This document shows, in pieces, positions 8,069 through 63,278 of a DNA stretch of 64,000 bases; the first letter of the stretch is position 1; every line of letters begins with the position of its first letter. Source of the stretch: a virus; IMG/VR virus record IMGVR_UViG_3300037520_000900, positions 16,277 through 80,276 of that record; one strand, 5' to 3'. The notes under the pieces were generated by a model that was not told where the DNA came from, searched no databases, and saw only the letters and a list, made by a program, of their open reading frames with translations. The position numbers and the translations under genes are program-made.

Positions 8069-8118
8069 AACTTGTTTTTATTTTAAAAATAATCTAACAT
8101 TAATCTATGTAAATAAAA

Positions 8119-8141
8119 AACCCCACTTTATCGGTGAGGTT
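8119..8141 (-). terminator. Rho-independent terminator after the tail tube gene
   Basis: On the minus strand an 8-base-pair stem (AACCTCAC / GTGGGGTT, one G-U pair) with a 7-base loop is followed by TTTTTTATTTA. It lies 25 bases after the tube stop codon, which fits a highly expressed tube mRNA. Confidence 0.8.
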
Positions 8142-8165
8142 CTTAAAAATATATTTAATTTTATA

Positions 8166-34985: not shown

Positions 34986-34990
34986 AAATC

Positions 34991-36877: not shown

Positions 36878-36878
36878 T

Positions 36879-37754: not shown

Positions 37755-37755
37755 A

Positions 37756-39261: not shown

Positions 39262-39263
39262 AT

Positions 39264-39896
39264 ATGTTTAATGTTATTACTCCACTAGCAAGATTTAATA
39301 ATCTAAATGATTTAACCAAACATTTATCAAACAAAGGTATAAGATGGCATGTTATTACCGATAGCGACTCAAATCAAAATTTAGAAATAGAAAATGAATG
39401 GACTAAACATTATATTTGTCCTAATGAAGGACAAACTTTTTGGGAAAGATGTAATTTTTCAATTAATTGGTTTATTGAAAATCAAGAAATAAATGATGAT
39501 GAATATTATTGTATTTTAAATGACGACGATGGGTATGAAAATGACTTTTTTAATAAAATTAAAAAATATATCTATGAAAGTGAATCCCAAAAAAGACCCA
39601 ACGATCTTATTATATGTTCAATGTTAAGGGGACATAATACACCAATGGACGCAATACCTGTAAGGAGGCACCCCACAAATACTTTATTTGCTAGACCAGA
39701 TCTAATGACAGTTGGTAATGTTGGTGTTGAACAGTTTATTGTTAAAGGAAAAATACTAAAAAATCACAGGTTACCATTAACAACTTGTGGTGATGGTGAG
39801 CTTATAACATTATTAGTAAAACTATATGACACACTTTATTTACCTGAAGTTTATGTTTGGTTTAACTACTTTGAACCGGGTAGATGGAATAAATAA
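39264..39896 (+). CDS. Glycosyltransferase-like protein (GT-A)
   Basis: 210 residues. Begins MFNVITPLARFNNLNDLTKH. The DDEYYCILNDDDGYENDFFN segment (about 77-96) carries a DDD metal site, then DLIICSMLRGHNTPMDAIPV and CGDGELITLLV. Shorter than typical GT2 enzymes, so it may be an inactive or minimal transferase. It sits between the two-domain GT and a small island protein. Confidence 0.65.
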   Translation: MFNVITPLARFNNLNDLTKHLSNKGIRWHVITDSDSNQNLEIENEWTKHYICPNEGQTFWERCNFSINWFIENQEINDDEYYCILNDDDGYENDFFNKIKKYIYESESQKRPNDLIICSMLRGHNTPMDAIPVRRHPTNTLFARPDLMTVGNVGVEQFIVKGKILKNHRLPLTTCGDGELITLLVKLYDTLYLPEVYVWFNYFEPGRWNK

Positions 39897-39912
39897 AATT
39901 AATTAAATTTAT

Positions 39913-40167
39913 ATGGAAACAATCGGTAACTTAATTGATAAATTAACTGTAACTAATATTCGTATATGGATGGCCGAGGATATTAAAAGAAAAAACGATG
40001 CAACGGATTTTGAGATTGCAAATGCAACAAAGATTACGAATGTTGCAAATCAACAAAGAAATGACCTTATACAAGAAATTGATGAGTTGATTAATTATTT
40101 GGTTGAAAATAAAAAATCTCAAAAACTTTACAAACAAGGATCAAATAAAATGTACGGAAAGCAATAA
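39913..40167 (+). CDS. Small island protein (84 aa), possibly DUF4254-like
   Basis: METIGNLIDKLTVTNIRIWM then AEDIKRKNDATDFEIANATK and NQQRNDLIQEIDELINYLVE. A helical pattern with 'id.L...n.r.w..ed ... qRN.LI.EID', seen from memory in small genes of sugar-nucleotide clusters. It comes just before the dehydratase-like gene. Its role is unknown. Confidence 0.5.
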   Translation: METIGNLIDKLTVTNIRIWMAEDIKRKNDATDFEIANATKITNVANQQRNDLIQEIDELINYLVENKKSQKLYKQGSNKMYGKQ

Positions 40168-40168
40168 A

Positions 40169-41119
40169 ATGAAAATTTTAATTACGGGACCACTAGGACA
40201 AGATGGTAAAATTTTAACTAAAATATTAGAAAATAAACACGAATTAATTGGTGTATGTAGATTAAACGTACCCCACCAAAAAGTAATTGACCATAACAAG
40301 CATTTTAAAATTGAGTTGTGTATGTCGGACTTAACTGATATTGGGTATGTTGAGCAATTAATAAAATCAGTTAAACCTGAAATAATAATTAATTTTGCTG
40401 GTGAAACGAACGTAATAGACCCTTGGTCTAATGTGTATGAAACCTTTAATCAAAATTTTAAAATTGTTTTTAATTTTTTAGAATCAATAAAAAAAGTAAA
40501 TAGGGACATATTTTTTTTTCAATCGTCATCATCTTTAATGTTTGGTAAATCTAAAGAACGTATAATAAATGAAAAAAGTTACTTTTCACCTCTTTACCCT
40601 TATGGGGTTTCTAAGTTAACATCTCATAATTTATTAGATGAATATAGATTTAAATATAATATTAAATGTTGCTCTGGTATTTTTTTTAATCACGATTCTT
40701 TTTACAGAAATGAAAAATTTATAACAAAAAAAATATCAACACATATTTGTGACATATTAATGGGATCAAAAAAAAAATTAAACTTGTATAATCTTAATTT
40801 TTATAGAGATTTAAGTCATGCAGAAGACTTTATGAAGGCAGTTGAAATAATAATAGAAAAAAAACTAAATGAAAATTTTGTTTTTAGTAGTGGTAATGAG
40901 GTTAATTTTTTAGACTTATCTAAAAAATTTTTTTATAAACACAATCTTGATTTTATGGAATTTGTAGAATACACTGAGGATAAAAAAGATACTGAGTTTC
41001 AATATAATATTATTGGGGACAGTACCAAATTAAAATCTTTTGGGTGGTCCCCAAAATATAATACAGATGATTTAATAAATGATATGGTAATTAAAGAAAT
41101 AAAATATAGAAACAGATGA
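40169..41119 (+). CDS. GMD-like short-chain dehydrogenase/reductase (second copy)
   Basis: Start at ATG 40169, directly after the preceding stop, giving 316 residues; an upstream start would run through the previous gene. MKILITGPLGQDGKILTKIL is the NAD(P) loop; IINFAGETNVIDPWSNVY, FFFQSSSSLMFG and SPLYPYGVSKLTSHNLLDEY give the Ser and YxxxK catalytic sites; GIFFNHDSFYRNEKFITKKI copies the 'giLFNHESprRg..FVTrKi' segment of GDP-mannose dehydratase. It looks like a diverged GMD; RHDS-type reductase or epimerase activity is possible. Extremely AT-rich coding sequence. Confidence 0.8.
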   Translation: MKILITGPLGQDGKILTKILENKHELIGVCRLNVPHQKVIDHNKHFKIELCMSDLTDIGYVEQLIKSVKPEIIINFAGETNVIDPWSNVYETFNQNFKIVFNFLESIKKVNRDIFFFQSSSSLMFGKSKERIINEKSYFSPLYPYGVSKLTSHNLLDEYRFKYNIKCCSGIFFNHDSFYRNEKFITKKISTHICDILMGSKKKLNLYNLNFYRDLSHAEDFMKAVEIIIEKKLNENFVFSSGNEVNFLDLSKKFFYKHNLDFMEFVEYTEDKKDTEFQYNIIGDSTKLKSFGWSPKYNTDDLINDMVIKEIKYRNR

Positions 41120-42051
41120 GTGTAATTTTTATAAATCATGTAAAATCACAGTGTGGTGTTTATGAAATTGGTAAAAGAATTTTCGATTTAATAGATAAAA
41201 AAACTTTACCTGTTAAATATTTTGAAACCTCAGTAAATGGTCTTAATGAATACCTTAAAATAATAGAGACAGAAAAACCTGATTTTATTTTATATAACTA
41301 TTTTTCGGTTACACTACCGTATTTAAATAAATCACTATTTAAAATGTTTCCTAATATAAAACACATTGGGATAATTCACGATCCCCTAACCCCTCAAATG
41401 ATTGATTTTTATAACAATACTTTTGACTGTTGGGTAATTCATGATCAAACAAATAAATCAATTAGTAATAATAAATTTACAACTGTTAGACCTATAAGAA
41501 GATTTGAAAAATTAGAAAAAAAACCTAATGGTACATTACAAATAGGTTCACACGGTTTTAGCGTATCACCGTGGAAGATGTTTGATAAAATTATAGATTT
41601 AATTAATCATGAATTTGATGAAGTTGTAATAAATATGAATATAACTCAAGCAACTTTTGGTGGTTACGAAGACCCTAAAAGATTTGACAATTGGAGAAAA
41701 TTAATAACCAAAAAAAATGTTCATTTAAATATTACAAATACGTATTATGAAACGGAGAATGAACTAATAAATTACTTATCAAAAAATGATTTAAATGTTT
41801 ATTTTTACAACCCCCCACACGAATTTGTTGGTGTTGGTGGTAGCGCAGATTTAGCAGTTAGTTCCCAATCCAGTCTGGTTGTTAACAACACATATATGTA
41901 TAGACATTTTCATGATTATTTAGGATTTTTTGAACAAAAAAATAATTTAACGTCATTTTTAGATAACAAAAAAGAAGTAAAAAAATTGTACGATTTATGG
42001 TCACCTGAAAAAATGACACAAGATTATAAAAATATGATAGAATCATTATGA
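41116..42051 (+). CDS. Putative glycosyltransferase, tandem paralogue 1
   Basis: 311 residues. MSVIFINHVKSQCGVYEIGK, DFILYNYFSVTLPYLNKSLF, IGIIHDPLTP, LQIGSHGFSVSPWKMFDKII and DLNVYFYNPPHEFVGVGGSA. The 'C-G-V-Y/H' N-terminal loop and a strand/helix C-terminal half fit a GT-B fold with the donor site around IGSHGFS and GVGGSADLAV. It overlaps the previous gene by four and the next by four bases. Substrate unknown. Similar in layout to the following gene. Confidence 0.6.
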   Translation: MSVIFINHVKSQCGVYEIGKRIFDLIDKKTLPVKYFETSVNGLNEYLKIIETEKPDFILYNYFSVTLPYLNKSLFKMFPNIKHIGIIHDPLTPQMIDFYNNTFDCWVIHDQTNKSISNNKFTTVRPIRRFEKLEKKPNGTLQIGSHGFSVSPWKMFDKIIDLINHEFDEVVINMNITQATFGGYEDPKRFDNWRKLITKKNVHLNITNTYYETENELINYLSKNDLNVYFYNPPHEFVGVGGSADLAVSSQSSLVVNNTYMYRHFHDYLGFFEQKNNLTSFLDNKKEVKKLYDLWSPEKMTQDYKNMIESL

Positions 42052-42956
42052 AAAATGTTTTATTAGTTAATAGAAAGACAACTAATTGTGGTGTACACCA
42101 ATACGGTTTAAACATATTTGAATCTTTAGAAAAAAGTAATAAAAATAAATATTTTTATTTAGAAACTAATGATTCAGAAACACTAATTAATTTTTTAAAT
42201 AACAACAAAATAGATGTAATAATCTTTAATTACATAATTTGGGTTATGGGGTGGATTACAAATGACTTAATTAGTTCTTTATTTTTAAACTATAAAATTT
42301 ACTTTATTTATCACGATGGGGACATACCCAATTTCCCATACAATGGAATACTTTATAATGACCCAACTAAAAATGTTAATAATATAAATGAATTTCTAAT
42401 AGATAGATGTCTTTTTGAATTTGAGTCAAATGAAAAAATAAATTTAGATAAAACCATAATATCCTCTTTTGGTTTTGGGTTTCCAGACAAAGGATTTCAA
42501 AAAATAATAAACAGAATAAATGAGGAATTTTCAGGGGCAATAATAAGACTACATATGCCAAATGCAAACGTAGATCCATTTAATAATTTAAAAAACCAAA
42601 CTTTAGATTTATGTAATAAAGAAGTTAAATCAAAAAATGAAATTATAATTACTAACAACTATATGAGTAATTTAGAACTTCTTAATTGGTTAAGCGAAAG
42701 TACAATAAATTGTTTTTTCTATGACAATAAAAGTTCAAAAGGAATTTCTTCTGTTATTGATTATGCTCTTTCTGTTAATGTACCAATTGCTGTTACTGAC
42801 TGCGATATGATGAGGCATATAATTTCAGACAAAATTTCTATTGAAAAAAATAAAATTTCAGATATAATTAATTATGGTTGTACACATCTTGAAGAATATA
42901 AAAAAAATTGGTCTAATAAAAATTTTAGAGATAAATTAGACTATATAATAAATTAA
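42048..42956 (+). CDS. Putative glycosyltransferase, tandem paralogue 2
   Basis: 302 residues, related to the gene before: NCGVHQYGLNIFESLE (CGVH vs CGVY), DVIIFNYIIWVMGWITNDLI, IYFIYHDGDIPN, IISSFGFGFPDKGFQKIINR, and SSKGISSVIDYALSVNVPIA. The same order of short motifs in the same spacing indicates a tandem duplication followed by divergence. Very A/T-rich. Likely a GT-B glycosyltransferase of unknown specificity. Confidence 0.6.
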   Translation: MKNVLLVNRKTTNCGVHQYGLNIFESLEKSNKNKYFYLETNDSETLINFLNNNKIDVIIFNYIIWVMGWITNDLISSLFLNYKIYFIYHDGDIPNFPYNGILYNDPTKNVNNINEFLIDRCLFEFESNEKINLDKTIISSFGFGFPDKGFQKIINRINEEFSGAIIRLHMPNANVDPFNNLKNQTLDLCNKEVKSKNEIIITNNYMSNLELLNWLSESTINCFFYDNKSSKGISSVIDYALSVNVPIAVTDCDMMRHIISDKISIEKNKISDIINYGCTHLEEYKKNWSNKNFRDKLDYIIN

Positions 42957-42969
42957 ATAAAAAAAAAAT

Positions 42970-44190
42970 ATGCAAGAACTTTTTACACTTGGTGATCTTT
43001 ATGTTTCCGACTTTTTAAATGAAAATGATAAACCTAGAGGTGGTAAGGTCGATTTAAAACTTATGTTAGAACACGAGACAGGATCGGTAAGACTCGATCA
43101 ATGTGCCCCTTTAGACACTATGTACGGAAAGTACTGGTATAGATCAGGAATTAACAACACAATGAAAAAAGAACTTAATGGTATTGTTACTTCTATATTG
43201 GAAAATTATAAATTACAAGATTCTGATTTATGGATTGATATCGCATGTAATGACGGTACTTTATTAAGTAATTTACCAAAAACATTAACTAGAGTTGGGA
43301 TAGATCCTGTTGACGACTCATTTAAATCGGAATCGGAAAAACACGCAAATTTAATAATTCAAGACTATTTTAGTTCAGACGTTTTTAAGAAATCTAAATA
43401 TGGTGAGTTAAAGGCTAAAGTTATTACGACAATCGCTATGTTTTATGATTTAGATAAACCAAAAGATTTTATTAACGATGTTTATGACGTGTTGGATGAT
43501 AACGGTGTTTGGGTGTTACAAATGTCATACACACCGTTAATGATTGAGCAAATGGCATTTGATAATATCTGTCACGAACACGTATATTATTATTCATTAT
43601 TTAATATTAAAAAAATCTTTAACGAATGTGGTTTTGACATTATTGATACACAATTAAATGATGTTAATGGGGGTTCTTTTAGGATTTATTGTATGAAAAA
43701 AACCTCCGATAAAACTAAATTTGGAACGCAACCATATAGAGATGTTTGTAAGTTTAGAGTTGAGTCTCTTCTTGAATATGAAAAGAGTTTAAGGTTGGAT
43801 TCGCCGATTACATGGTTTAATTTTTTTAAAAACATTAATGAACTAAAAGAAAAAACGGTTTCTTTTATTAAAGAAGAAAAAAATAAAGGTAAGAAAATAT
43901 GGGCTTATGGTGCGTCAACAAAAGGGAATACGTTGTTACAGTATTTTGGTTTAGACAACACTTTAATTGATGGTATCGCAGAAAGAAGTCCTTATAAATT
44001 TGGTTTAAAAACAGTTGGTACAAATATCCCTATTTTTTCTGAAGAAGAAATGAGAAAAGAAAACCCTGATTACTTGTTGGTGTTACCTTGGCATTTTATA
44101 AATGAGTTTGTTGAACGTGAATCCGAATTTTTAAAGTCTGGTGGTAAATTTATTGTTCCGTGTCCTAAATTTGAAATCATTGGTAAATGA
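42970..44190 (+). CDS. Sugar C-methyltransferase-like enzyme (TylC3/NovU type)
   Basis: 406 residues. The N-terminal region (LGDLYVSDFLNE) matches the start of the family but lacks the usual Cys cluster. DLWIDIACNDGTLLSNLPKT is SAM motif I (about 84-103); DNICHEHVYYYSLFNIKKIF (about 197-216) and WAYGASTKGNTLLQYFGLDN (about 312-331) and LPWHF (about 378-382) are typical of the C-methyltransferase family acting on nucleotide-linked deoxysugars. With GMD it could make a C-methylated (branched) 6-deoxysugar. Confidence 0.85.
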   Translation: MQELFTLGDLYVSDFLNENDKPRGGKVDLKLMLEHETGSVRLDQCAPLDTMYGKYWYRSGINNTMKKELNGIVTSILENYKLQDSDLWIDIACNDGTLLSNLPKTLTRVGIDPVDDSFKSESEKHANLIIQDYFSSDVFKKSKYGELKAKVITTIAMFYDLDKPKDFINDVYDVLDDNGVWVLQMSYTPLMIEQMAFDNICHEHVYYYSLFNIKKIFNECGFDIIDTQLNDVNGGSFRIYCMKKTSDKTKFGTQPYRDVCKFRVESLLEYEKSLRLDSPITWFNFFKNINELKEKTVSFIKEEKNKGKKIWAYGASTKGNTLLQYFGLDNTLIDGIAERSPYKFGLKTVGTNIPIFSEEEMRKENPDYLLVLPWHFINEFVERESEFLKSGGKFIVPCPKFEIIGK

Positions 44191-44819
44191 AGTATTACGC
44201 AGAATTTGATACAGATAAAATATTAAGAGAAACTTTTTTTCCTGATTTTAACTATAAAGGTATTATTGTTGAAGTTGGTGGTGGTACTCCGGATTTTCTT
44301 TCTATGTCCAAACACTTTAAAGATACCGGTTGGAGGGCTATAATTATAGAACCTAACCCTAAATTTGTTGAGGATCATAAAAAACATAATAATGAGGTAT
44401 ATCAGTATGCATGCTCTTATGAAAATAGAATCGGGGAATTTACAATTGTCCAACAAAACGTAGAAGCCTATGGCGGTAAAGTCACTGACCATTCTTTTTC
44501 ATCTATTTCATTAAAAGAAGAATATTTGAAAGAAACAAACGTTAACCCAAATAGTTTAAATATAAAAAAAATATCTGTTGAAATTAAAAGGCTTGATGAT
44601 ATTTTGAGTGATATTGGTGTTAAGGATATTGACATATTATCTATAGACGTTGAAGGTTGGGAATTAGAGGTTATGATGGGTATAGATTTAAATAAAATAA
44701 ACTGTAATATAATAGTTGTAGAAAATTTTTTAAATGATAAAAAGTACAACGAATATTTTGAAAGTTTGGGGTATAAATTAACCCGTCAAATAAAATACAA
44801 CCAAATTTATACAAAATAA
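44187..44819 (+). CDS. FkbM-type methyltransferase 1
   Basis: 210 residues. VEVGGGTPDFLSMSKHF (motif I), AIIIEPNPKFVEDHKKH, and ILSIDVEGWELEVMMGI (about 150-166), the SIDVEG(W/h)E signature of FkbM methyltransferases. These O-methylate sugars in glycans and surface polysaccharides. It overlaps the sugar C-methyltransferase by four bases. Confidence 0.88.
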   Translation: MKYYAEFDTDKILRETFFPDFNYKGIIVEVGGGTPDFLSMSKHFKDTGWRAIIIEPNPKFVEDHKKHNNEVYQYACSYENRIGEFTIVQQNVEAYGGKVTDHSFSSISLKEEYLKETNVNPNSLNIKKISVEIKRLDDILSDIGVKDIDILSIDVEGWELEVMMGIDLNKINCNIIVVENFLNDKKYNEYFESLGYKLTRQIKYNQIYTK

Positions 44820-44821
44820 AA

Positions 44822-45421
44822 ATGTACTACTCTCAATCAAATCAAGACAAATGGGTCAATGAGTTTTATAATAATAAAAAAGATGGGTTTTTTGTTGAAG
44901 TTGGCGCCTTTGATGGTATACAAACAAGTAATACCTACTTTTTTGAAAAAACTTTAGGGTGGGGTGGCGTATGTATAGAGGCCAATCCTGAAATTTTTAA
45001 AAGATTATCTCAAAACCGTAGGTCAATAAATTTAAATTATGCAATTTCAGATCACGAAGGTGAGTGTTTTTTTTCCACAGATAGAATTTCAGAAAATGGG
45101 TATAGAGTGAATTGTTCAAGACTAGACGTGCTATTGAAAAGTGTTAATTGCCCAAGAATAATAGATTATATGTCTATAGATATTGAAGGTCATGAATATA
45201 TAGCACTTAATAATTTTAATTTTAGTGATTTTCAAGTTAACCTTATGACGGTAGAACATAATCTTTATTCGGAAGGATCTAAAATGAAAGATGAAATTTA
45301 TCATCTTTTAACTGATAATGGATTTACAAGAGTTTTAGAAGATGTTGTTTGTTTAGACACTAATCCATTATACTTTAATAAACCATACGAAGATTGGTAC
45401 ATAAATAACATATTACTTTAA
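44822..45421 (+). CDS. FkbM-type methyltransferase 2
   Basis: 199 residues. YYSQSNQDKWVNEFYNNKKD and FFVEVGAFDGIQTSNTYFFE at the N-terminus, then MSIDIEGHEYIALNNFNF (about 118-135), the FkbM SIDIEG(H)E signature. Related to the preceding gene but not a simple copy. Likely adds methyl groups to a different sugar or position. Confidence 0.88.
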   Translation: MYYSQSNQDKWVNEFYNNKKDGFFVEVGAFDGIQTSNTYFFEKTLGWGGVCIEANPEIFKRLSQNRRSINLNYAISDHEGECFFSTDRISENGYRVNCSRLDVLLKSVNCPRIIDYMSIDIEGHEYIALNNFNFSDFQVNLMTVEHNLYSEGSKMKDEIYHLLTDNGFTRVLEDVVCLDTNPLYFNKPYEDWYINNILL

Positions 45422-45424
45422 AAA

Positions 45425-46396
45425 ATGAAAAAAGCAATAATAACGGGAATAAATGGTCAAGACGGCTCATATTTGGCGGAGTTTCTTTTAGAAAAAGGTT
45501 ATGATGTTCATGGTGTGATGAAACGTAATTCTGTTTCTGAAACACAAGCAATAAGAGTAGAACACATAACCGATAAAATAACATTACATTATGGTGATAT
45601 TACAGATTTATCCTCATTAATACGTATTATAGGTGAAGTACAACCAAATGAAATTTACAATTTAGCAGCACAATCTCACGTTAGAATTTCTTTTGACGAA
45701 CCAATTTATACATCACAAGCCACAGGTGTTGGGGCATTGAATGTTATTGAATCCGTTAGACTTTTAAAACTCGATTGTAAAATTTATCAAGCATCGTCTT
45801 CAGAAATGTTTGGTAATAATATAGATAATGATGGATTTCAGAGAGAATCAACTAGAATGGTGCCTGTATCCCCATACGGAATTTCAAAGTTATTTGCACA
45901 TAATATGGGTATAAACTATAGAAATTCGTATAATATGTTTATTAGTAATGGTATTTTATTTAATCACGAATCACCTAGAAGGGGTACAAATTTTGTAACA
46001 AACAAAGTTTGTAAGGAGGCAGTAAAAATAAAATTAGGTTTAACTGATAAAATAAAATTAGGCAATTTAAAGGCGACTAGAGATTGGGGACACGCTAAAG
46101 ATTACGTTGAGGCCATGTGGTTAATACTACAACAAGAAACCCCCAACGATTACGTATGTTCAACAGGAATATCTCATTCAGTTGAAGATCTTGTGATTTA
46201 TGTTTTTAACAAATTAGGGTTAGATTGGAAAAAATACGTTAATACAGATTCAAAATACCTAAGACCTGAAGAATTAAATGATTTAAAAGGAGATTCCACT
46301 AAATTAAGAGAATTGACAGGATGGAAACCAAAATACACTTTTGAGTCTATGTTAGATGAAATGATTGAATATTGGTTAAATTATTATAAAAAATAG
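45425..46396 (+). CDS. gmd: GDP-mannose 4,6-dehydratase
   Basis: 323 residues, close to the family's 320-370. AIITGINGQDGSYLAEFLLE (NADP loop), LHYGDITDLSSL, YNLAAQSHVRISF, QASSSEMFG, PVSPYGISKLFAH (YxxxK), NGILFNHESPRRGTNFVTNK, and LGNLKATRDWGHAKDYVEAM, with the TRDWGHA and RP-E-(V/L)-N-DLKGD features of GMD. Converts GDP-mannose to GDP-4-keto-6-deoxymannose, the branch point to GDP-fucose, rhamnose and related sugars. No reductase/epimerase for GDP-fucose (WcaG) is seen in the window; the later enzymes must come from the host or from the island SDR. Confidence 0.97.
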   Translation: MKKAIITGINGQDGSYLAEFLLEKGYDVHGVMKRNSVSETQAIRVEHITDKITLHYGDITDLSSLIRIIGEVQPNEIYNLAAQSHVRISFDEPIYTSQATGVGALNVIESVRLLKLDCKIYQASSSEMFGNNIDNDGFQRESTRMVPVSPYGISKLFAHNMGINYRNSYNMFISNGILFNHESPRRGTNFVTNKVCKEAVKIKLGLTDKIKLGNLKATRDWGHAKDYVEAMWLILQQETPNDYVCSTGISHSVEDLVIYVFNKLGLDWKKYVNTDSKYLRPEELNDLKGDSTKLRELTGWKPKYTFESMLDEMIEYWLNYYKK

Positions 46397-46399
46397 AAT

Positions 46400-47134
46400 A
46401 TGACAAGAAAAAAACAACAACCACAAACCGAAGAACAGGATTCAAAACCCTTTTCAAAAAAAGACTTTATAAATTCAGTAGTCAAGAAAAAAGTAAAAAA
46501 TAAATTTCTAACAGAAAATCAAGAACATTATTATAATCTTTTAAGAAACAATCAAATAACAATTTGTTCGGGACCTGCGGGTGTTGGTAAATCATATATC
46601 GCAATGAAAGCGGCGGTTGATTTATTAATGGACCCAACTAACCATTATGAAAAACTGGTTATTGTTAGACCGGCAGTAGAGGCTGAAGAAAAATTAGGAT
46701 CACTCCCTGGTAACTTAGAAGAAAAATTAGACCCTTACATTTTCCCGTCTTATTACTTATTAAATAAAATTATTGGAAAAGAGGCAAGAGAGAAATTAAA
46801 AGATGCTGAAATTATTGAAGTATTCGCATTAGCATACATGAGAGGAATGAATATAGATAACACGATTTTAATATTTGAAGAAGCACAAAACTCAAGTCCA
46901 AATCAAATGAAATTACTATTGACAAGGATAGGGTTTAATAGTAAATTCTTTATATCAGGAGACATTGAACAAACTGACCGTTATAGAGACAAAAAACAAT
47001 CAGGTCTGTATGACGCAATTAAAAAGTTTAATGATGTTCACGATATTGGCGTGTTTGAGTTTGGTGATGGGGATGTGGTAAGAAACCCACTTATAAGTAA
47101 GTTATTAAAAAAGTATGAAGAGAATAGGGATTGA
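46400..47134 (+). CDS. phoH: PhoH-like ATPase
   Basis: 244 residues. CSGPAGVGKSYIAMKAAVDL is Walker A (about 56-75), VIVRPAVEAEEKLGSLPGNL the family-specific R-P-A/V-E loop, ILIFEEAQNSSPNQMKLLLT Walker B, and SGDIEQTDR the sensor. This is the phage PhoH ATPase, commonly carried by phages, with suggested RNA or phosphate-related roles. It overlaps the next gene by 20 bases. First gene after the GMD. Confidence 0.93.
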   Translation: MTRKKQQPQTEEQDSKPFSKKDFINSVVKKKVKNKFLTENQEHYYNLLRNNQITICSGPAGVGKSYIAMKAAVDLLMDPTNHYEKLVIVRPAVEAEEKLGSLPGNLEEKLDPYIFPSYYLLNKIIGKEAREKLKDAEIIEVFALAYMRGMNIDNTILIFEEAQNSSPNQMKLLLTRIGFNSKFFISGDIEQTDRYRDKKQSGLYDAIKKFNDVHDIGVFEFGDGDVVRNPLISKLLKKYEENRD

Positions 47135-47765
47135 AATTAATGGTGTGTTAAGGGATACTATCGGTAAGTTTACACAGTTATATGAAAAACATATGATTGA
47201 AGAAAAAGAAGATGGGTCAAAAACTTATGAACTTGATATGTCCGGTAATACCGAAGAACTAAACCCAAAAGAAGATTTTGAATATAAAATTTTAAATGAT
47301 GTTACATCATTAAACTTGATGGATCATTTCAGTTTTAATGATGAGAATGAACTTTACTCTTTTATGTATGAAGATTTTGCAATGCAGATTTTTGGACACG
47401 CTGGTTCGACAGAAACCTTTACGTTTAATGACTTAAATGAAATTTATCATAATTATCGAAATACAAATGAACTTTTAATAGTCTCTGATGAAATGGGTAA
47501 ATCAAAACCAGCATCATTATTTTTCCTTTCTAAGTTTGGGTGTTTATTAGAAAAGATAAAATTTTATTCAAATTTTACAATAAATTCAATGTGGGATGAA
47601 ATTGACGTTTTACTTACAGCAAATCCTCAACTAATATTAGAAAAACCAAAAGATAAAATCGTAGTTAAATATAATACGACATATAATAAAAACGTCGAAG
47701 CGGACTATGAGATTGAAAAATTGAAGGAGTTTGATGACATATTAAAAAAATTAAATTTATGTTAA
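47115..47765 (+). CDS. Degenerate HAD-like protein
   Basis: 216 residues. The start MKRIGIEINGVLRDTIGKFT has the frame of HAD motif I (DxDGVLRD) but the two catalytic Asp are replaced by E and N (E-I-N-G-V). LIVSDEMGKSKPASLFFLSK (S then K, motifs II and III) and MWDEIDVLLTANP (motif IV place) remain. If this reading is right it is a HAD pseudoenzyme, and the fold may be used for binding. It overlaps PhoH and precedes a 96-residue gene by six bases of overlap. Confidence 0.6.
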   Translation: MKRIGIEINGVLRDTIGKFTQLYEKHMIEEKEDGSKTYELDMSGNTEELNPKEDFEYKILNDVTSLNLMDHFSFNDENELYSFMYEDFAMQIFGHAGSTETFTFNDLNEIYHNYRNTNELLIVSDEMGKSKPASLFFLSKFGCLLEKIKFYSNFTINSMWDEIDVLLTANPQLILEKPKDKIVVKYNTTYNKNVEADYEIEKLKEFDDILKKLNLC

Positions 47766-48049
47766 CATTTTTAGGTGAAAACTATTACTTGGACATTGAT
47801 GAGTTAGAAAAACAGGTAAGTTATGAAAAGTCTGTTTTACCATTAACAGTTTCAGGAGAAACAGAAACACCGGAACAACAAATAAGCGTTACAAGATACG
47901 ACACTTTCAAAAGTCTTATTGAAGTATTATTAACTGAAAGAGAAGAATTAGATGAAAGTTTGGGTATGCATGGAGCAAAGGATTTAACTATCCCTTTTAA
48001 ATTGGCATTTAATACACTATTAATAAACCACGTTCTAAAAAAATTATAA
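47759..48049 (+). CDS. Small hypothetical protein (96 aa)
   Basis: MLTFLGENYYLDIDELEKQV then SYEKSVLPLTVSGET and FKSLIEVLLTEREELDESLG. A beta-type start and helical C-terminal half, with no motif I can name. Overlaps the degenerate HAD gene by seven bases and is one base from the GT4-like gene; co-transcribed. Confidence 0.5.
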   Translation: MLTFLGENYYLDIDELEKQVSYEKSVLPLTVSGETETPEQQISVTRYDTFKSLIEVLLTEREELDESLGMHGAKDLTIPFKLAFNTLLINHVLKKL

Positions 48050-48050
48050 A

Positions 48051-49118
48051 ATGGAATTAGAAAAAATAGAAAAAATAGAAGGTTCTATTAAAAACCTAAA
48101 AGACAAAACGGCTAAGATTTATTTCTTGGTTCAAGACACTAAAGGCAACGCAAAAGGGTCTATTGCCTACACCTATCAGATGGCTAAAGCGTTATTTGAT
48201 AATAAATACAATGTTATAATTATTCATGAAGCTCAAGAATACACGGGTGTTGGTGAGTGGTTAGGTGAAGAATATATGGCAATTCCTCACGAATCTATTG
48301 AAGGTAAAAACCTATCAATATCACCTGAAGATTTTATTATTGTTCCTGAATTATATGGTCATGTTATGGATCAATTAAAGAACTTCCCATGTGGAAAAAT
48401 TGTTTTATGTCAGGCGTATGATAATATTTTAGAAACTTTAGCTCCTGGTGTTACTTGGCAACAATATGGATTCGCTAAAGTCATCACTACTACTCAAACA
48501 CAAAAAGAGTATGTTAAACAAATTATGAGAAATGCTAGCGTGGATGTCATTGAACCAACAATCTCTAAACATTTTTCTAAAAAAGAAAAACCATCAAAAC
48601 CTATTATTACTATTCATACAAGAGAACCAAGAGACACCGCAAAAATAATTAAAAGTTTTTATTTAAAATACCCACAATTTAGATGGATTACATTTAGAGA
48701 TATGAGAGGGATTAAACAAGAGGACTTTGCTAAATTTTTAAAGGACTCATATGTTTCTGTTTGGGTTGACGATGTTTCAGGATTTGGTACATTCCCATTA
48801 GAATCTATGACATCAGGTACTCCTGTGATTGGTAAAATACCAAACTTAAAACCGGAATGGATGGATGAGAGTAATGGTATTTGGACATATCAGTACAACG
48901 AAATCATCGATGTTGTTGCAAACTTTACCCAAAATTGGTTAGAAGATAATATCTCACCTGAATTATATGAAAAAATGTTAGAATCATCTAAAAAATATCA
49001 AGACGACTCAAAATTTGAAAATGACGTTATTGAAACTTTTAATAAATACTTTGAAACTAGAAGTAAATTATTTTCAGACCAATTGGATAAACTAAAAATA
49101 TCAGAAGAACAAAATTAA
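48051..49118 (+). CDS. GT-B glycosyltransferase-like (GT4)
   Basis: 355 residues. KIYFLVQDTKGNAKGSIAYT (acceptor loop), YNVIIIHEAQEYTGVGEWLG, then IVLCQAYDNILETLAPG in the first half; IITIHTREPRDTAKIIKSFY (donor entry), FGTFPLESMTSGTPVIGKIP (the E-x-M-x-x-G-T-P nucleotide-sugar binding helix of GT4 enzymes). The C-terminal helix (SPELYEKMLESSKKYQDDSK) is a GT-B closing helix. Target unknown. Confidence 0.8.
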   Translation: MELEKIEKIEGSIKNLKDKTAKIYFLVQDTKGNAKGSIAYTYQMAKALFDNKYNVIIIHEAQEYTGVGEWLGEEYMAIPHESIEGKNLSISPEDFIIVPELYGHVMDQLKNFPCGKIVLCQAYDNILETLAPGVTWQQYGFAKVITTTQTQKEYVKQIMRNASVDVIEPTISKHFSKKEKPSKPIITIHTREPRDTAKIIKSFYLKYPQFRWITFRDMRGIKQEDFAKFLKDSYVSVWVDDVSGFGTFPLESMTSGTPVIGKIPNLKPEWMDESNGIWTYQYNEIIDVVANFTQNWLEDNISPELYEKMLESSKKYQDDSKFENDVIETFNKYFETRSKLFSDQLDKLKISEEQN

Positions 49119-49120
49119 TT

Positions 49121-49933
49121 ATGGAAACAAAAGAAATATTTGACGTATCGGTAATATTACCAATCAGCTCATCAATGCACCCTCTATTTGATGATCTACT
49201 AGAGAGAAGTATTAAATCATTACAAATGCAATTAACGGGTATAAACGAACTTGTTATTGTACATACTGATGAAGAAATTTTAAAAAATAAATTAACAAAT
49301 TATAATTTTGGAGAACTAAATGTTAATTTAGTTGAAAACAAAGGTGAATTTGATTTTGCTACACAAGTTAATTTAGGTGTTAAAAACGCAAAAAGTAAGT
49401 GGGTTTCAGTTTTAGAATTTGATGATGAGTACGCAACCATTTGGTTTAAAAACGTAAAAAGATATGTTGAATCTTACGATGACGTATCTGCATTTTTACC
49501 ATTAGTTGTTGACACTGACGATAAGGGTGTTTTTGTTGGGTTCACTAATGAGGCCACTTTTGCTGTTAGTATGAATTCAGAAATGGGTTATTTAACTAAT
49601 GACTTATTGTTAAGTTATCAAAATTTCCAATCATCTGGAATGGTCGTACAAAAAAACGTCTATGAAAGTTTAGGTGGATTTAAAAAATCAATGAAACTAA
49701 CATTTGTTTATGAATTTTTATTGAGACTAACTTACAACTCAACAAAAATAATGACAATACCAAGAATTGGATACAAACATATGAACATGAGGGAAGGTTC
49801 TATTTTTTGGAACTATAAAAATAGTGATGATAGACTTACAGATGATGAGGTTTCATTTTGGATTGATTCAGCAAAAAAAGAACATTTTTTCACTGGAGAT
49901 AGAAACATAAAATATGAACCACAAAATGTTTAA
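49121..49933 (+). CDS. GT2-type glycosyltransferase
   Basis: 270 residues. FDVSVILPISSSMHPLFDDL, NELVIVHTDEE, KSKWVSVLEFDDEYATIWFK (with the DDE metal site), and a SSGMVVQKNVYESLGGFKKS segment as in GT2 acceptor loops, then VYEFLLRLTYNS. Last gene of the island; its stop overlaps the late sigma start by one base. The short length (270) is normal for GT2. Confidence 0.85.
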   Translation: METKEIFDVSVILPISSSMHPLFDDLLERSIKSLQMQLTGINELVIVHTDEEILKNKLTNYNFGELNVNLVENKGEFDFATQVNLGVKNAKSKWVSVLEFDDEYATIWFKNVKRYVESYDDVSAFLPLVVDTDDKGVFVGFTNEATFAVSMNSEMGYLTNDLLLSYQNFQSSGMVVQKNVYESLGGFKKSMKLTFVYEFLLRLTYNSTKIMTIPRIGYKHMNMREGSIFWNYKNSDDRLTDDEVSFWIDSAKKEHFFTGDRNIKYEPQNV

Positions 49934-57709: not shown

Positions 57710-59698
57710 TTAATATTTGGTTATTTTTCTCATAGTTCCGTCGTCATAAATTTCAATTACAATTCCTTTTATATTTTCAGGATTAACTTCTTGACCCATC
57801 AAATTTATGTATTTGACAATTTTTTTATCTGTAATATCCCTCGTGATAACTATCGGACCATAAGTCTCACACTTACCGTCAATATCAAATTGTTGTAATC
57901 TATAATAAACAATACTATTTAAATTATTATCAATATATGAATATCTTATAGTTTCATTACTATTACCAGCAGCTTGTTTTGTTGCAATAACTTTCCAAAC
58001 ATAACCATCTTCACTTGATTCTAAATCAAAATGACTTGAGTTGTTTTCAGATTCTGTCGACCATTTAATCACATTAAATAATGGATATAAATCACCTTCA
58101 AATTGGCTCAATTCAACAGGCAAGGCAACTGATATTCTAACCGTATATTCTTCTATTTCTCCATAACCATAACCTAACGAATAATACGCATCAATATCAG
58201 GTGTACTATTCCATACAGATAATACTCTCATTAAAACGTCACCTGTTACTGCATCTGAAGGTATTGTTACAAGTTGTGATGTAGAATTTGCCGTTGCTTT
58301 TAATAAAACATTTTCTGTTGTTTGTAAGATACCATCACCATTCCAATCAATCCAAGCAGCATAACCTTGACCTGGATTTAAAGTGTTTGCTGCAGTTACG
58401 GATAAATTATAAGGTTCACCTTTTGTAACATTTGCAATTATTGAGGTATAATCTGAATACGCATCTCCATCATTAGTTGTTGTATTATTTATATCATTAA
58501 AAGTAACATTTGTTATGTGGTCCCCATCAACAATTCCTGATGAATATGGTGGTGCACTTTTAAGTGTTATATTTACAATATTAGAAACACCAGATGGACA
58601 AGTACCGTCTTTTGATGTTGTTCTAAAATACACGTTTGCTTCTTGTACGTTTAATTGAATGTTGTACGGATTTGCGGGGTTTGTAACACTACCGTCTACT
58701 GTTGTAAAATTATCAAATGACCACTCGATTTTTGTTATTGACCCACCATTTCCGGTAGTCGTTAAAGAAACCCCATCATTAACTGTTGTTAAACTTTTAT
58801 TAGTGCTTAATGTTCCTCCATTTGTTGGTGTTGTACATACCGTAACTGATGTTACTGTTGCTTGAAAACCAGTCCTAATACCGCTAATATCTGAAGTAAA
58901 CCTTAATGTAAGTTGTCCTGAAGCATTTTCAGCAGTAATTGTTGCGGGTAATGATGTACCATTTAATGTTGCAAGTAAGGGAGAACTTGTATTTGGTCCA
59001 TCATAAACATATAAGAAATCATAAACGGCCTCTATGTTGAATGATGAAAAATTTAATTGTAATTTTTTTGTATTATCTGATGGTGTTAAAGTTACTGTTT
59101 GATCTAAATTATTATTATATGTGTCAGTAGGTCCTCCGGCATCAGTTATTGTATAAGTAAGTGTAGATGTTAATGTTTGACTACAATTTCCTAAAAATGG
59201 TATTAGTGTATTTTGATTTGTCACAGTTGATGTAATACCTAAATCATCGACATATCTTTCGTGTGCACCTGATGCTCTACCATCTAAAAGCCTTATAAAA
59301 ACATTTGTAAGACCTAAAGCTCCAATATTTAAAGTGTATTGTTGATAGGTTGTTGTTGGTGCAGTTACAGTACCCCTTGTTGTCCAAGTTGTTCCGTCAG
59401 GGGATGTTTGAACATTTAAAGTCCAAGCGGTTGAGTTACTACTTCTTCTATACCAAAAAGAAAGAACGCCCGGATTTGCAATTTGTGGCGTTCTAATCCA
59501 ATCGCCGGTACCATTAAATCCTGCGGCATAATTACCGGTTCTATTTGGTGAAGTTGATGCAAGTATGGAATTTACGCCCCATGTACCTCCTTGTGTTGTT
59601 AATGTACTTGTAAAACTTTCGTAAATTAAATATTGATTACATTGGGTAATCCCAATAAACGACATTAAGGTAAATAGTAAGATTAAAAAACTTTTCAT
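57710..59698 (-). CDS. Secreted multidomain protein with CUB, GEVED and type IX secretion C-terminal signal
   Basis: I choose ATG 59698 (662 residues): MKSFLILLFTLMSFIGITQC is a Sec signal peptide; an upstream start would bury it. Domains in order: a jelly-roll/adhesion-like domain (about 25-160, FWYRRSSNSTAWTLNVQTSP, ending RYVDDLGIT); a CUB-like domain (about 168-286, LQLNFSSFNIEAVYDFLYVY with YDGPN and TGFQATVTSVTVC); an Ig-like part; a GEVED domain (about 393-517, YAAWIDWNGDGIL and GEIEEYTVRI); then LPVELSQFEGDLYPLFNVIK and the rest of the flavobacterial pre-sorting domain (NSIVYYRLQQFDIDGK), and a T9SS type A C-terminal signal (KIVKYINLMGQEVNPENIKG, ending IEIYDDGTMRKITKY). Such proteins are exported to the surface of Bacteroidota. 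Its phage promoter (TATTTATT) and place after the capsid gene make this a striking moron-like gene. Confidence 0.88.
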   Translation of the reverse strand: MKSFLILLFTLMSFIGITQCNQYLIYESFTSTLTTQGGTWGVNSILASTSPNRTGNYAAGFNGTGDWIRTPQIANPGVLSFWYRRSSNSTAWTLNVQTSPDGTTWTTRGTVTAPTTTYQQYTLNIGALGLTNVFIRLLDGRASGAHERYVDDLGITSTVTNQNTLIPFLGNCSQTLTSTLTYTITDAGGPTDTYNNNLDQTVTLTPSDNTKKLQLNFSSFNIEAVYDFLYVYDGPNTSSPLLATLNGTSLPATITAENASGQLTLRFTSDISGIRTGFQATVTSVTVCTTPTNGGTLSTNKSLTTVNDGVSLTTTGNGGSITKIEWSFDNFTTVDGSVTNPANPYNIQLNVQEANVYFRTTSKDGTCPSGVSNIVNITLKSAPPYSSGIVDGDHITNVTFNDINNTTTNDGDAYSDYTSIIANVTKGEPYNLSVTAANTLNPGQGYAAWIDWNGDGILQTTENVLLKATANSTSQLVTIPSDAVTGDVLMRVLSVWNSTPDIDAYYSLGYGYGEIEEYTVRISVALPVELSQFEGDLYPLFNVIKWSTESENNSSHFDLESSEDGYVWKVIATKQAAGNSNETIRYSYIDNNLNSIVYYRLQQFDIDGKCETYGPIVITRDITDKKIVKYINLMGQEVNPENIKGIVIEIYDDGTMRKITKY

Positions 59699-59724: not shown

Positions 59725-59799
59725 GTTTCAAAAGCCATAATAACAAGGTTAATTTTGTGTTAAATGAGCATACCCCTTAATTAATTTACCAAAAACAAA

Positions 59800-59825
59800 A
59801 AAGGAGACAATTTCTTGTCTCCTTT
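59800..59825 (-). terminator. Strong rho-independent terminator after major capsid gene
   Basis: Minus strand perfect 11-base-pair stem (AAAGGAGACAA / TTGTCTCCTTT) with 4-base loop, followed by TTTGTTTTT. The strongest terminator in the window, as expected for the capsid mRNA. Confidence 0.92.
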
Positions 59826-59848
59826 CTCTTATTCAGTTAAGATATTGA

Positions 59849-61672
59849 TTATCTCAATTCTTGTAAGTCGAATGTTCTAACTCCATCAACTGTGATTCTA
59901 CCATAGAAACGGTTGTTAACCATTTTCTTAGCGTATCTCGTCATGATACCTTTGATAGGTGTAAAGTTGAATGGGTTATACATTGTAGGTGTTAATTGTA
60001 GAGGTACATACGGAGCGTAAACGTATCCTGTGTCTAACAAAGACGAACCTTTGTGTCCGATAAGGATTTGGTTAGCTGGGAAGTATGGATCTCTATACAC
60101 TTGGTAACGACCTGCCAATGTACCAACTCTTTCGATACCCATGTTGTACTGATCTTGCTCCGGAGAAGCGTTAGATACGTGGAAGTACTCAAGGTCATCA
60201 AAGATTGCAGAAACTTCAGAAGAAACAACGATCCAGTTAGCTCCACCTCTCAATGTAGATTTGTGGATTTGTGCTGACAATTGGTTAATTGCTGTAATCA
60301 AAGTTTGATTCCAATCTTTTTGAGTGTATGATGTTGTTTGAGAAATTCTTCTCCATCCGTTGTAATCCCATCTTAGGTTCCAAGCCGCTCCTTTTCTAAG
60401 GTCTCTCAAGATTTCTCTATCGATTTCAGCCGCCACTTGCTCAGACAATAAAGCTGTTAATTCAGCCTCAGCGTCGATGTTATGGAATGCTGAAACGTCT
60501 TGTGCTAATTCAGGTGACCATTGTGCTCTTAGTTTTCTTTCTGTAACTGATACAGTAACTGACTCAAGGTCAAAAGAAACTTCACCAATTTTATCTTCAA
60601 ATTCTAATTCAGCGTATCTTTTAAATACCGCAGTAAATGATGTTCCAGAAGGAATTGCAGTTACAGTTGCTCCTGTATAACCATCTAAAGATGTAGCGTT
60701 ACAGTCAGCACATACCGGACAAGATAAATCAACTTCTAAGTAAATACATCCATCAACTGAACATACACTTTCGTAAGAACCACCATTTCCACCAGGGAAT
60801 TCAGTTCTAACTACATTATAATTAGGATTAACAATCGCTTTACCGTATTGTTGAGTAACTACTCTAAACAATAATGGTGTAGCAGAAGGAACAGTACATG
60901 GTGAACTTCCACCAATAGTTAAACCATCAGATTTAATGATTTTTAAATCAGAAAGGAAAGATTCTGTATCCATTTCAGATCCATCAGGACCAATTAATTT
61001 ACCAGTACCCACTTGGTTAAATCCACACATTTTTAATAATACTTTTCTAACACCTGTTGTAGATGCTGTATAAGTAGCACTGTTATTAGATGGAATTAGA
61101 GTACCGTTAGACCACTCTAAAACAGTTGTAGGTGAAGTAACCGCAGTAAATGTACCTTTTGAATAATCGAATAATCCTGGAGGGTTTAATCCTGCTTCAG
61201 CACCTTCATAAAATAAATCATAAAGATTTTTAGCGTATTCGTTACCATCATCATAACCTGATGCCGTAGTACTATCTGAACCTGGAGCTCCGATTGGTGC
61301 AAAATGCGTGTTAGGGTTAGCTGCGTCGCCATTATATCCTTGGATTTTAGGTACAAAGTAGAACAATTTACCGATTGGTAAGTTCATAGCTTGTACAGAT
61401 ACTAAATCATTAGCCAACAATTTAGAGAAAACTCTTCTAACGATAGGAAATACTACAGTTTCAAATGAACCTGAACTATCAGTAGATGCCGCTTCGTTAA
61501 TTAGGTGAGACGCTTGGTTTTCATATAACTGTGCCATGTTCTCTTTGATGTGTCCTTTAAGACCGTCTAGGAATCCTAATCTATCCCATTTGTTAATTGT
61601 ATCTTCTTTGATAACTTTCAAGTGCTTAAGACCGATGTTACCTACAAGACCTGATTCTAATAATGCTCCCAT
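59849..61672 (-). CDS. gp23: Major capsid protein (gp23-like)
   Basis: 607 residues (T4 gp23: 521). The first 60 residues end HLINE then AAST, which fits a propeptide cut by a gp21-type protease after [LI]-x-E; T4 gp23 is cut after residue 65. The conserved start of the mature domain has FETVVFPIVRRVFSKLLAND then LVSVQAMNLPIGKLFYFVPK, as in T4 gp23 (VRRAIPNL..YDVCGVQPM). The C-terminal part has FHVSNASPEQDQYNMGIERV, YRDPYFPANQILIGHKGSSL and YAPYVPLQLTPTMYNPFNFT then PIKGIMTRYAKKMVNNRFYG, typical. An insertion with Cys (CPVCADCNA) is present. It forms the head shell. Confidence 0.96.
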   Translation of the reverse strand: MGALLESGLVGNIGLKHLKVIKEDTINKWDRLGFLDGLKGHIKENMAQLYENQASHLINEAASTDSSGSFETVVFPIVRRVFSKLLANDLVSVQAMNLPIGKLFYFVPKIQGYNGDAANPNTHFAPIGAPGSDSTTASGYDDGNEYAKNLYDLFYEGAEAGLNPPGLFDYSKGTFTAVTSPTTVLEWSNGTLIPSNNSATYTASTTGVRKVLLKMCGFNQVGTGKLIGPDGSEMDTESFLSDLKIIKSDGLTIGGSSPCTVPSATPLLFRVVTQQYGKAIVNPNYNVVRTEFPGGNGGSYESVCSVDGCIYLEVDLSCPVCADCNATSLDGYTGATVTAIPSGTSFTAVFKRYAELEFEDKIGEVSFDLESVTVSVTERKLRAQWSPELAQDVSAFHNIDAEAELTALLSEQVAAEIDREILRDLRKGAAWNLRWDYNGWRRISQTTSYTQKDWNQTLITAINQLSAQIHKSTLRGGANWIVVSSEVSAIFDDLEYFHVSNASPEQDQYNMGIERVGTLAGRYQVYRDPYFPANQILIGHKGSSLLDTGYVYAPYVPLQLTPTMYNPFNFTPIKGIMTRYAKKMVNNRFYGRITVDGVRTFDLQELR

Positions 61673-61748: not shown

Positions 61749-63278
61749 TTATTTAATTTTTGCCATCAAATCCTTCATTCTCATGAACTGAGGATTCTCA
61801 TACGTTTTACTTTCGATTAGATTTGTTGCTGATCCTGTTTGTGGAGTTTTAACCACTCTTTCAGTGATTGATTCTTTAACAACAGTCGCAGATCCATTAC
61901 CATCTAATTCGTTTTTAATTGTTTTGTAGAGATTTTTAGACTCTTTCAAAGATTCTACATTATCAAATCTTCTAAGAATATTTATTTTCTCTTGTTTTGT
62001 TGTTGAGTGTTCGGTAAACAATCTTGTTGAGTATGCTAAATTTGAATTAAATACAGCAACTTCATTTAATTTATTTCTAAAGAAGTCTAATGCTTTTTTA
62101 TACTCTTCATTTTTTTCTCTCAATAAGTTTAACTCACCATTTACAGATTCAACTTTTAAATGTCTAGGTGCGGTTCTTGGTTTAGGAAGGCCTTTTCTAC
62201 CCCAATATTTACCGTTACCCAAAGTTCTAGCCGCTTCAGATTGTTCTGCAGAATCTTTACGTGATATAGGTAATAATTCTTCACCGTCTTCTTCCTCGTT
62301 CCACTCTTCTTCCATTTCTTTTTCAAATGAAGTTTCAGCAACACCTCTTTTTAATTTAGATGGATATTTGAATTTCATTTTTCCTACTCTTCCTTTAGCT
62401 TTAAAAGATTCCATTTTCAACTCTTCGTCATCCTGTTCGTACATTTCAGCACCTAAATCATCTTCGTCATCCTGTTCGTACATTTCAGCACCTAAATCAT
62501 CTTCGTCATCCTGTTCGTACATTTCAGCACCTAAATCATCTTCACCACCTATTTCGTACATAGGTTTTGGTTTTTGATCTTGTTCTGAATATTCAGTAGT
62601 ATTACCCGTTTCATACATTTCGTACTCATCTTCATATTCATCTTCGTGATCATCATAACCTGACTCGTCAGAATACTTATCATATCCAACTTCTTTATCT
62701 TCAAAACTTAATTCATAAAGAATTTCCTCATCTAATCTTGATTTCATTTTTCTTTTTCTTTTGCTCTCCTCTAATTGAACCATGTAATCTTTGTTCGTTT
62801 CATTGTCAGATATGTGTAAAAATTTACCATCTCTTTTAACAATAATACCATCTTCATCTCCCATAGCCCTAAATACTTTAAGTACGTCAGTCATAGGTGA
62901 TTGAGTCATGTCCAATGGAGGCATTTCTTGATTATCATCAACAGAAACTTCGGCATCCATTTCCATGTCACCTTCGTCGTCGGTGTCCATTTCATAATCA
63001 GCCATTTCTGTTTCATCTTCCATTCCGTCTTCCATTCCGTCTTCCATTCCGTCTTCTAAATTCTCGTCTTCAACCTCTGGGGTTTCCATACCTTCTTCTT
63101 GTTCATATAAAGACCTTTTAGATTTTTTTGAACCACTTAATGATTCCCTTACTAATTCACTGATTTCTTCCTTCATCGTAGAAGCAAGTATTCCTTTTGC
63201 GTTTTCGCTGATAGCGTCTTCAACTGCCTTTATTTGTAATAAGGTGTTTTCTACTATCGATTTTTCATTTCCTGTCAT
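61749..63278 (-). CDS. gp22: Prohead scaffold/core protein (gp22-like)
   Basis: Start at ATG 63278 (509 residues); the longer frame would begin at a TTG inside the promoter. Position between protease and capsid genes is the T4 21-22-23 order. The C-terminal helical part (ESVNGELNLLREKNEEYKKA, LDFFRNKLNEVAVFNSNLAY, STRLFTEHSTTKQEKINILR, FDNVESLKESKNLYKTIKNE) resembles the T4 gp22 core pattern. The middle has an acidic low-complexity insertion, including three 39-base repeats (DDLGAEMYEQDDE) and MEDG repeats. Such acidic cores are expected to be cut into peptides during maturation. Confidence 0.82.
   Translation of the reverse strand: MTGNEKSIVENTLLQIKAVEDAISENAKGILASTMKEEISELVRESLSGSKKSKRSLYEQEEGMETPEVEDENLEDGMEDGMEDGMEDETEMADYEMDTDDEGDMEMDAEVSVDDNQEMPPLDMTQSPMTDVLKVFRAMGDEDGIIVKRDGKFLHISDNETNKDYMVQLEESKRKRKMKSRLDEEILYELSFEDKEVGYDKYSDESGYDDHEDEYEDEYEMYETGNTTEYSEQDQKPKPMYEIGGEDDLGAEMYEQDDEDDLGAEMYEQDDEDDLGAEMYEQDDEELKMESFKAKGRVGKMKFKYPSKLKRGVAETSFEKEMEEEWNEEEDGEELLPISRKDSAEQSEAARTLGNGKYWGRKGLPKPRTAPRHLKVESVNGELNLLREKNEEYKKALDFFRNKLNEVAVFNSNLAYSTRLFTEHSTTKQEKINILRRFDNVESLKESKNLYKTIKNELDGNGSATVVKESITERVVKTPQTGSATNLIESKTYENPQFMRMKDLMAKIK
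62424..62540 (-). repeat. Three perfect 39-bp coding repeats
   Basis: Copies at 62424-62462, 62463-62501 and 62502-62540. Each keeps the frame and encodes a 13-residue acidic unit. A fourth, altered copy follows. Confidence 0.95.
63016..63051 (-). repeat. Three perfect 12-bp coding repeats
   Basis: Unit tcttccattccg, encoding MEDG/GMED, near the scaffold N-terminal third. In-frame slippage product. Confidence 0.9.

What the first reader, a model, noticed from the sequence alone, without database searches (positions are those of the whole stretch)
57710..59698. Phage gene for a type IX-secreted surface protein (signal peptide, CUB, GEVED, T9SS C-terminal signal) next to the capsid gene
The 662-residue product has a Sec signal peptide, an adhesion-like jelly roll, a CUB-like domain, a GEVED domain and the flavobacterial LPVEL...WSTESENNSSHF...YYRLQQFDIDG pre-sorting domain, then a C-terminal sorting signal. 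These are the marks of proteins exported through the Bacteroidota type IX system. It lies directly after the major capsid gene, between a strong terminator and a TATTTATT promoter, so it would be made late and sent to the host surface. Possible uses: masking receptors from other phages, adhesion or aggregation of infected cells, or a structure that aids lysis or release. I know of no described phage gene with this architecture, but I have not searched.
Basis: partly seen in the sequence, partly recalled or inferred. Interest (0 to 1): 0.87.

Follow-up and report, generated by a model that had tools for sequence, protein, structure and literature searches.

The report
Phage-borne exchangeable T9SS surface protein
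Right after its capsid gene, this large virus of Bacteroidota carries a gene for a protein that looks built to ride the host's own type IX secretion machine to the cell surface; related viruses swap the outward part of this protein while keeping its promoter and signal peptide or its C-terminal sorting module, which suggests they redecorate infected cells, probably late in infection.

Summary
Window 57710-59698 (-) encodes a 662-aa protein: Sec-type signal peptide, N-terminal jelly-roll-like region, CUB (2e-10), GEVED (3e-13), then an LPVEL...YYRLQQFDIDG module. It lies directly after the gp23-type capsid gene, behind a strong terminator. No Pfam or NCBIfam T9SS profile hits its C-terminus. 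Comparative evidence still supports a T9SS cargo. The ~42-aa tail is a short C-terminal signal native to SprA-bearing Crocinitomicaceae, modelled as three strands like the short CTDs shown in Prevotella intermedia to be cleaved and glycosylated. One phage homologue has swapped its C-terminal module for one with a type A-like tail. Of 72 distinct viral ORFs with this module, 71 have the short tail, and 68 of 69 with intact 5' ends have a signal peptide ending in small residue + Gln. The gene follows the capsid gene in 43 of 47 informative loci. Bodies fall into about ten families and are exchanged independently of the capsid gene. dN/dS is 0.05-0.25. Phage-borne T9SS cargo was already reported (Cryophage, 2020), so this is a new variant, not a first. 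What the displayed protein does (rival-phage exclusion, adhesion) remains inferred.

The parts
57710..59698 (-). 662-aa predicted T9SS cargo gene
   Evidence: homologues
59642..59698 (-). Signal peptide region, residues 1-19 (predicted cleavage between T18 and Q19, Q-rule)
   Evidence: 41/41 phage family members have SP-like N-terminus with small residue + Q; background 47/793
58856..59185 (-). CUB domain, residues 172-281
   Evidence: Pfam PF00431 2.2e-10; cubilin/neuropilin CUBs by phmmer
58139..58363 (-). GEVED domain, residues 446-520
   Evidence: Pfam PF20009 2.7e-13
57839..58123 (-). LPVEL...YYRLQQFDIDG module (about residues 526-620), Ig/FN3-like sandwich in the model
   Evidence: pLDDT about 90
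57713..57838 (-). Short C-terminal sorting signal, residues 621-662 (DITDKKIVKYINLMGQEVNPENIKGIVIEIYDDGTMRKITKY), three predicted strands
   Evidence: natural swap for a module with a long tail in L006
59717..59724 (-). TATTTATT, candidate late promoter element 26 nt upstream of the start codon
   Evidence: TATTTAT[AT] in 25/31 cargo upstream regions (shuffles mean 3.6, max 8) and 25/77 capsid-gene upstream regions (mean 1.3, max 5)
59797..59828 (-). Rho-independent terminator after the capsid gene
   Evidence: 14-bp stem plus T-run
59849..61672 (-). Major capsid protein, gp23 family
   Evidence: Pfam PF07068 1.6e-74, PHROG 138

Best explanation
This is a phage-encoded cargo of the host's type IX secretion system. 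After transcription from its own late-type promoter (inferred), the protein is exported by the host Sec pathway and cut before Gln19 (inferred, Q-rule). A short three-stranded C-terminal signal then takes it through the host's SprA translocon (inferred from comparison; this group's hosts are probably Crocinitomicaceae-like Flavobacteriales). It is displayed on, or released from, the infected cell. The locus works as an exchangeable display slot: a similar promoter and signal peptide on one side and the C-terminal module on the other, with different adhesin-like or carbohydrate-binding bodies between them. The most likely use is remodelling the surface of the infected cell, above all blocking rival phages at host receptors (about 0.35 as to function). 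Adhesion or aggregation is next (about 0.25). The confidence given below is for the export claim, not for the function.
For: (1) Signal peptide with Q-rule cleavage site in 41/41 phage members, background 47/793 ORFs; 68/69 in the larger set. (2) The short tail occurs on 2-13 proteins in each of seven Crocinitomicaceae-type genomes, all of which have SprA and at least 116 type A cargo hits. (3) After the same LPVEL module, tails are either 51-55 aa or 94-104 aa, with none between. (4) L006 has the same body (87% identical) but a C-terminal module with a type A-like tail. (5) The module is modelled at pLDDT 89 and the tail forms three strands, as described for P. intermedia short CTDs, which support cleavage and glycosylation (PMC11969387). 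(6) Other cargo genes at the same phage locus carry bona fide type A signals: subtilase and SprB-repeat proteins in L037. (7) dN/dS 0.05-0.25. (8) Cargo DNA is 92% identical to L008 while capsid genes are 77% identical; Mantel capsid versus body r = 0.01, P = 0.42. (9) L010 and L017: 60 nt upstream and 57 nt of signal peptide 100% identical, next 60 nt 27%.
Against: No T9SS profile matches the window protein. Profile-profile comparison of short and long tails is weak (E 0.0018, probability 15%, only 19 columns). Motif D is GxxI rather than the usual GxY. No structure in PDB matches the C-terminal model at E <= 0.001. No host is identified directly, and no expression or localisation data exist. 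The C-terminal module itself is also exchanged (dS about 1 or more while the body has dS 0.06-0.3), so it is not a fixed resident part.
Confidence: 0.8

Rival explanations
1. The protein is exported by Sec but not by T9SS: the C-terminus is just a structural domain and the protein stays in the periplasm or outer membrane.
For: No curated T9SS profile hit; weak profile homology to long CTDs.
Against: The short tail is terminal in every member, follows the module that otherwise carries long CTDs, occurs in SprA-bearing bacteria, and is replaced together with that module by one with a long tail in L006.
Confidence: 0.12
2. It is a virion decoration or receptor-binding protein (Hoc- or fibre-like), since it is next to the capsid gene.
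For: Adjacency to the capsid gene in 43/47 informative loci; adhesin-like domains.
Against: A signal peptide in essentially every member would remove it from the cytoplasm where heads assemble; separate terminator and promoter; exchanged independently of the capsid gene.
Confidence: 0.05
3. It is an ordinary host-derived moron with no role for the phage, carried along by homing-endonuclease-driven exchange at the capsid locus.
For: Homing-endonuclease-like genes occupy the same slot in many relatives (by eye); only 12 of 42 capsid-anchored loci carry it; a 70-aa remnant exists (L035, L036).
Against: Purifying selection over the whole body (dN/dS 0.05-0.25); conserved upstream element; no full-length bacterial homologue in 150 family-level or 345 class-level genomes.
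Confidence: 0.08

Closest known systems
Cryophage T9SS-tagged cargo genes (Bellas et al. 2020, PMC7468147)
   Same: Phage genes with T9SS type A sorting domains, hypervariable between phage variants; superinfection or competition role proposed
   Different: Three cargo genes (endoglucanase, GH39, PA14) with type A signals; here a CUB/GEVED adhesin-like family behind gp23, with a short signal and a promoter-signal-peptide platform
crAss-like cluster 2 T9SS/BACON ORFs (de Jonge et al. 2019, PMC6949934)
   Same: T9SS-domain ORFs next to the head genes of Bacteroidota phages
   Different: Different phage group and different bodies; role left open
Short CTDs of Prevotella intermedia (Ye et al. 2025, PMC11969387)
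   Same: Signal of about 43-55 aa, three-stranded, Gly in motifs B and D, basic motif E; supports cleavage and glycosylation there
   Different: Different sequence family: motif D GxxI, preceded by an LPVEL module; found here in Crocinitomicaceae and phages
bS21-encoding Bacteroidetes phages (Chen et al. 2022, PMC9723584)
   Same: Nine of 16 related records tested have bS21 above cut-off; large freshwater phages with the capsid and other head genes clustered, and surface-polysaccharide genes
   Different: The passages read do not mention secretion cargo; the window's own record has no bS21 match and ends before the position expected from relatives

Membership tests
T9SS cargo (CTD protein) | N-terminal Sec signal peptide | tested here: met
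   heuristic plus Q-rule; no SignalP available
T9SS cargo (CTD protein) | C-terminal signal that directs secretion | tested here: inconclusive
   Comparative support; no secretion assay possible
T9SS cargo (CTD protein) | Present in organisms that have SprA | tested here: met
   SprA in 7/7 bacteria carrying the short tail; the phage itself has none, as expected
T9SS type A CTD (TIGR04183, PF18962) | Profile match | tested here: not met
   no match in the window protein
T9SS type A CTD (TIGR04183, PF18962) | Seven-strand beta-sandwich of about 70-100 aa | tested here: not met
   Tail of about 42 aa, three strands modelled
P. intermedia-type short CTD | About 43-55 aa, three strands, Gly in motif B, basic motif E | tested here: met
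P. intermedia-type short CTD | Motif D GxY (or GxN) | tested here: not met
   G[IVLF]x[IFL] in most rows of alignment A2; Gly conserved, Tyr absent
P. intermedia-type short CTD | Sortase cleavage and C-terminal glycosylation | not testable with these tools
   Needs proteomics

The most novel reading that the evidence does not exclude
Large T4-like phages of Bacteroidota keep a dedicated surface-display slot behind the capsid gene: a late promoter, an interchangeable signal peptide and a minimal T9SS signal into which ectodomains are swapped, giving antigen-like variation of the infected cell's surface to exclude rival phages.
Probability: 0.35. Interest if true: 0.82.

Novelty: new variant of a known kind. 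Interest (0 to 1): 0.62.

Why it matters
If right, phages use the host's type IX system as their own late display system, with a compact signal that current profiles miss, so such cargo is under-counted in phages and in Crocinitomicaceae. The cassette layout makes superinfection exclusion or adhesion directly testable by swapping bodies. It also gives a natural test of how small a T9SS signal can be.

Tried and rejected
Pfam and NCBIfam searches for a T9SS sorting domain in the window protein: none. Full-length AlphaFold2 model poor (pLDDT 62), so its PDB matches are used only for the CUB region, which sequence search supports independently. C-terminal model against PDB: nothing at E <= 0.001. 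Idea that the C-terminal module is a fixed resident part onto which bodies are swapped: rejected as a general rule, because neither module nor body tracks capsid distance (Mantel P 0.56 and 0.42) and the module is often the more diverged part. Contamination: rejected. INPHARED phage records: no full homologue, only module-level matches in huge uncultured phages.

Full report
Observation. Window 57710-59698 (-) is one intact ORF of 662 aa. Pfam finds CUB at 172-281 and GEVED at 446-520, both above cut-off. The gene follows a gp23-family capsid gene, is separated from it by a 14-bp-stem terminator and has TATTTATT 26 nt before its ATG. The record is an 80,276-base IMG/VR virus contig.

Family. 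A scan of IMG/VR gave 36 loci with relatives. A profile of the last ~136 residues then found the same C-terminal module on unrelated bodies at the same place, and a further scan found 246 encoding stretches in viral contigs, of which 80 loci were kept. Among 72 distinct viral ORFs with the module, 71 have the short tail and one the long; 68 of 69 with intact 5' ends have a signal peptide ending in small residue + Gln; bodies fall into 11 clusters, one of them made only of 5'-truncated ORFs; the capsid gene lies within 4.5 kb upstream on the same strand in 43, and is absent in only 4 that have enough upstream sequence to tell. In a set fetched by capsid gene rather than by cargo, 12 of 42 loci with enough downstream sequence carry the module. 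The rest carry homing-endonuclease-like genes, unknowns or other secreted proteins such as subtilases.

Is the tail a T9SS signal? Four lines say yes. First, proteins with the same module divide cleanly into those with a 51-55-aa and those with a 94-104-aa stretch after YYRLxQxDxDG; the long ones resemble type A CTDs. Second, the short tail is native to Crocinitomicaceae and Fluviicola genomes, 2-13 proteins per genome, all with SprA and over a hundred type A hits. Third, phage L006 has the same body at 87% identity but a C-terminal module ending in a type A-like tail (Por_Secre_tail 20 bits, E 0.0009, aligned 1-74 of 75, below the 27-bit cut-off): a natural domain swap. Fourth, the module is modelled with mean pLDDT 89 and the tail as three strands, the form Ye et al. 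2025 describe for P. intermedia short CTDs, which are cleaved and glycosylated (PMC11969387); the same paper recalls that Hbp35 needs only its last 22 residues. Against it: short and long tails align only weakly, and motif D lacks the Tyr.

Exchange. The window's cargo DNA is 92% identical to that of L008 although their capsid genes are only 77% identical, and the same holds for L015 and L019. Conversely L015, whose capsid gene is 86% identical to the window's, has a 90% identical C-terminal module but a different body. Over 24 loci neither body nor module tracks capsid distance. Between L010 and L017 the 60 nt upstream and the 57 nt of signal peptide are 100% identical and the next 60 nt drop to 27%. 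dN/dS is about 0.05-0.25, so the protein is under purifying selection. I read this as a display slot whose ectodomain is replaced by recombination.

Timing. TATTTAT[AT] occurs upstream of 25 of 31 cargo genes (shuffles 3.6, max 8), mostly 26 nt before the start, and upstream of 25 of 77 capsid genes (shuffles 1.3, max 5), about 48 nt before the start. Sequences are related, so counts are not independent events. Sharing with the capsid gene suggests late expression; it is not measured.

Host and phage group. Nine of 16 records tested carry bS21 above cut-off, which links the group with the bS21 phages predicted to infect freshwater Bacteroidetes (PMC9723584). The best bacterial relatives of the module are Crocinitomicaceae-type. 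No bacterial genome of 150 from that family or 345 from the class had a full-length relative; partial matches fall in the CUB, GEVED and module parts of other, often larger, proteins.

Function. Shown: the anatomy, the family, the exchange, the selection. Inferred: Sec and T9SS export, late timing. Guessed: the use. Variation of a surface-displayed ectodomain between close phages, in a phage that also carries surface-sugar-like genes, fits exclusion of rival phages best (0.35), adhesion or aggregation next (0.25). Phage-borne T9SS cargo is not new as such (PMC7468147; PMC6949934).

Noticed in passing
L006 7926-10142: Same body as the window protein, but C-terminal module replaced by one with a type A-like tail: a natural signal swap.
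   Followed up: yes
L035 and L036, about 8000-8180: 70-aa remnant: signal peptide and first residues fused in frame to the last 16 residues, the body deleted; identical in two contigs.
   Followed up: partly
L037 8015-12748: Several successive secreted-looking genes after the capsid gene: subtilase with type A signal, two SprB-repeat proteins (one with type A signal), and a short-signal cargo.
   Followed up: partly
L002 6336-7790; L107 9551-11875; L006 6167-7819 (-): Phage-encoded secreted-looking S8 subtilases in or near the post-capsid slot.
   Followed up: partly
L111 7872-8447: Signal-peptide-bearing DNA/RNA non-specific endonuclease behind the capsid gene.
   Followed up: no
window 33774-49933: Long run of glycosyltransferase-, methyltransferase- and sugar-dehydratase-like genes, suggesting surface-glycan remodelling (by eye, not profiled).
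   Followed up: no
window 25421-29179 (-): 1252-aa protein full of N-x-I/F repeats (NNxIGNNF), probably a beta-helix fibre (by eye).
   Followed up: no
window 62368-62577: Acidic tandem repeat (EQDDEDDLGAEMY) in the gene upstream of the capsid gene, perhaps the scaffold.
   Followed up: no
L231 1691-3369 (LR745206, 634,780-base phage): Related C-terminal module in a huge uncultured phage, on a separate ORF overlapping the end of a secreted-looking ORF: frameshift or assembly error.
   Followed up: partly
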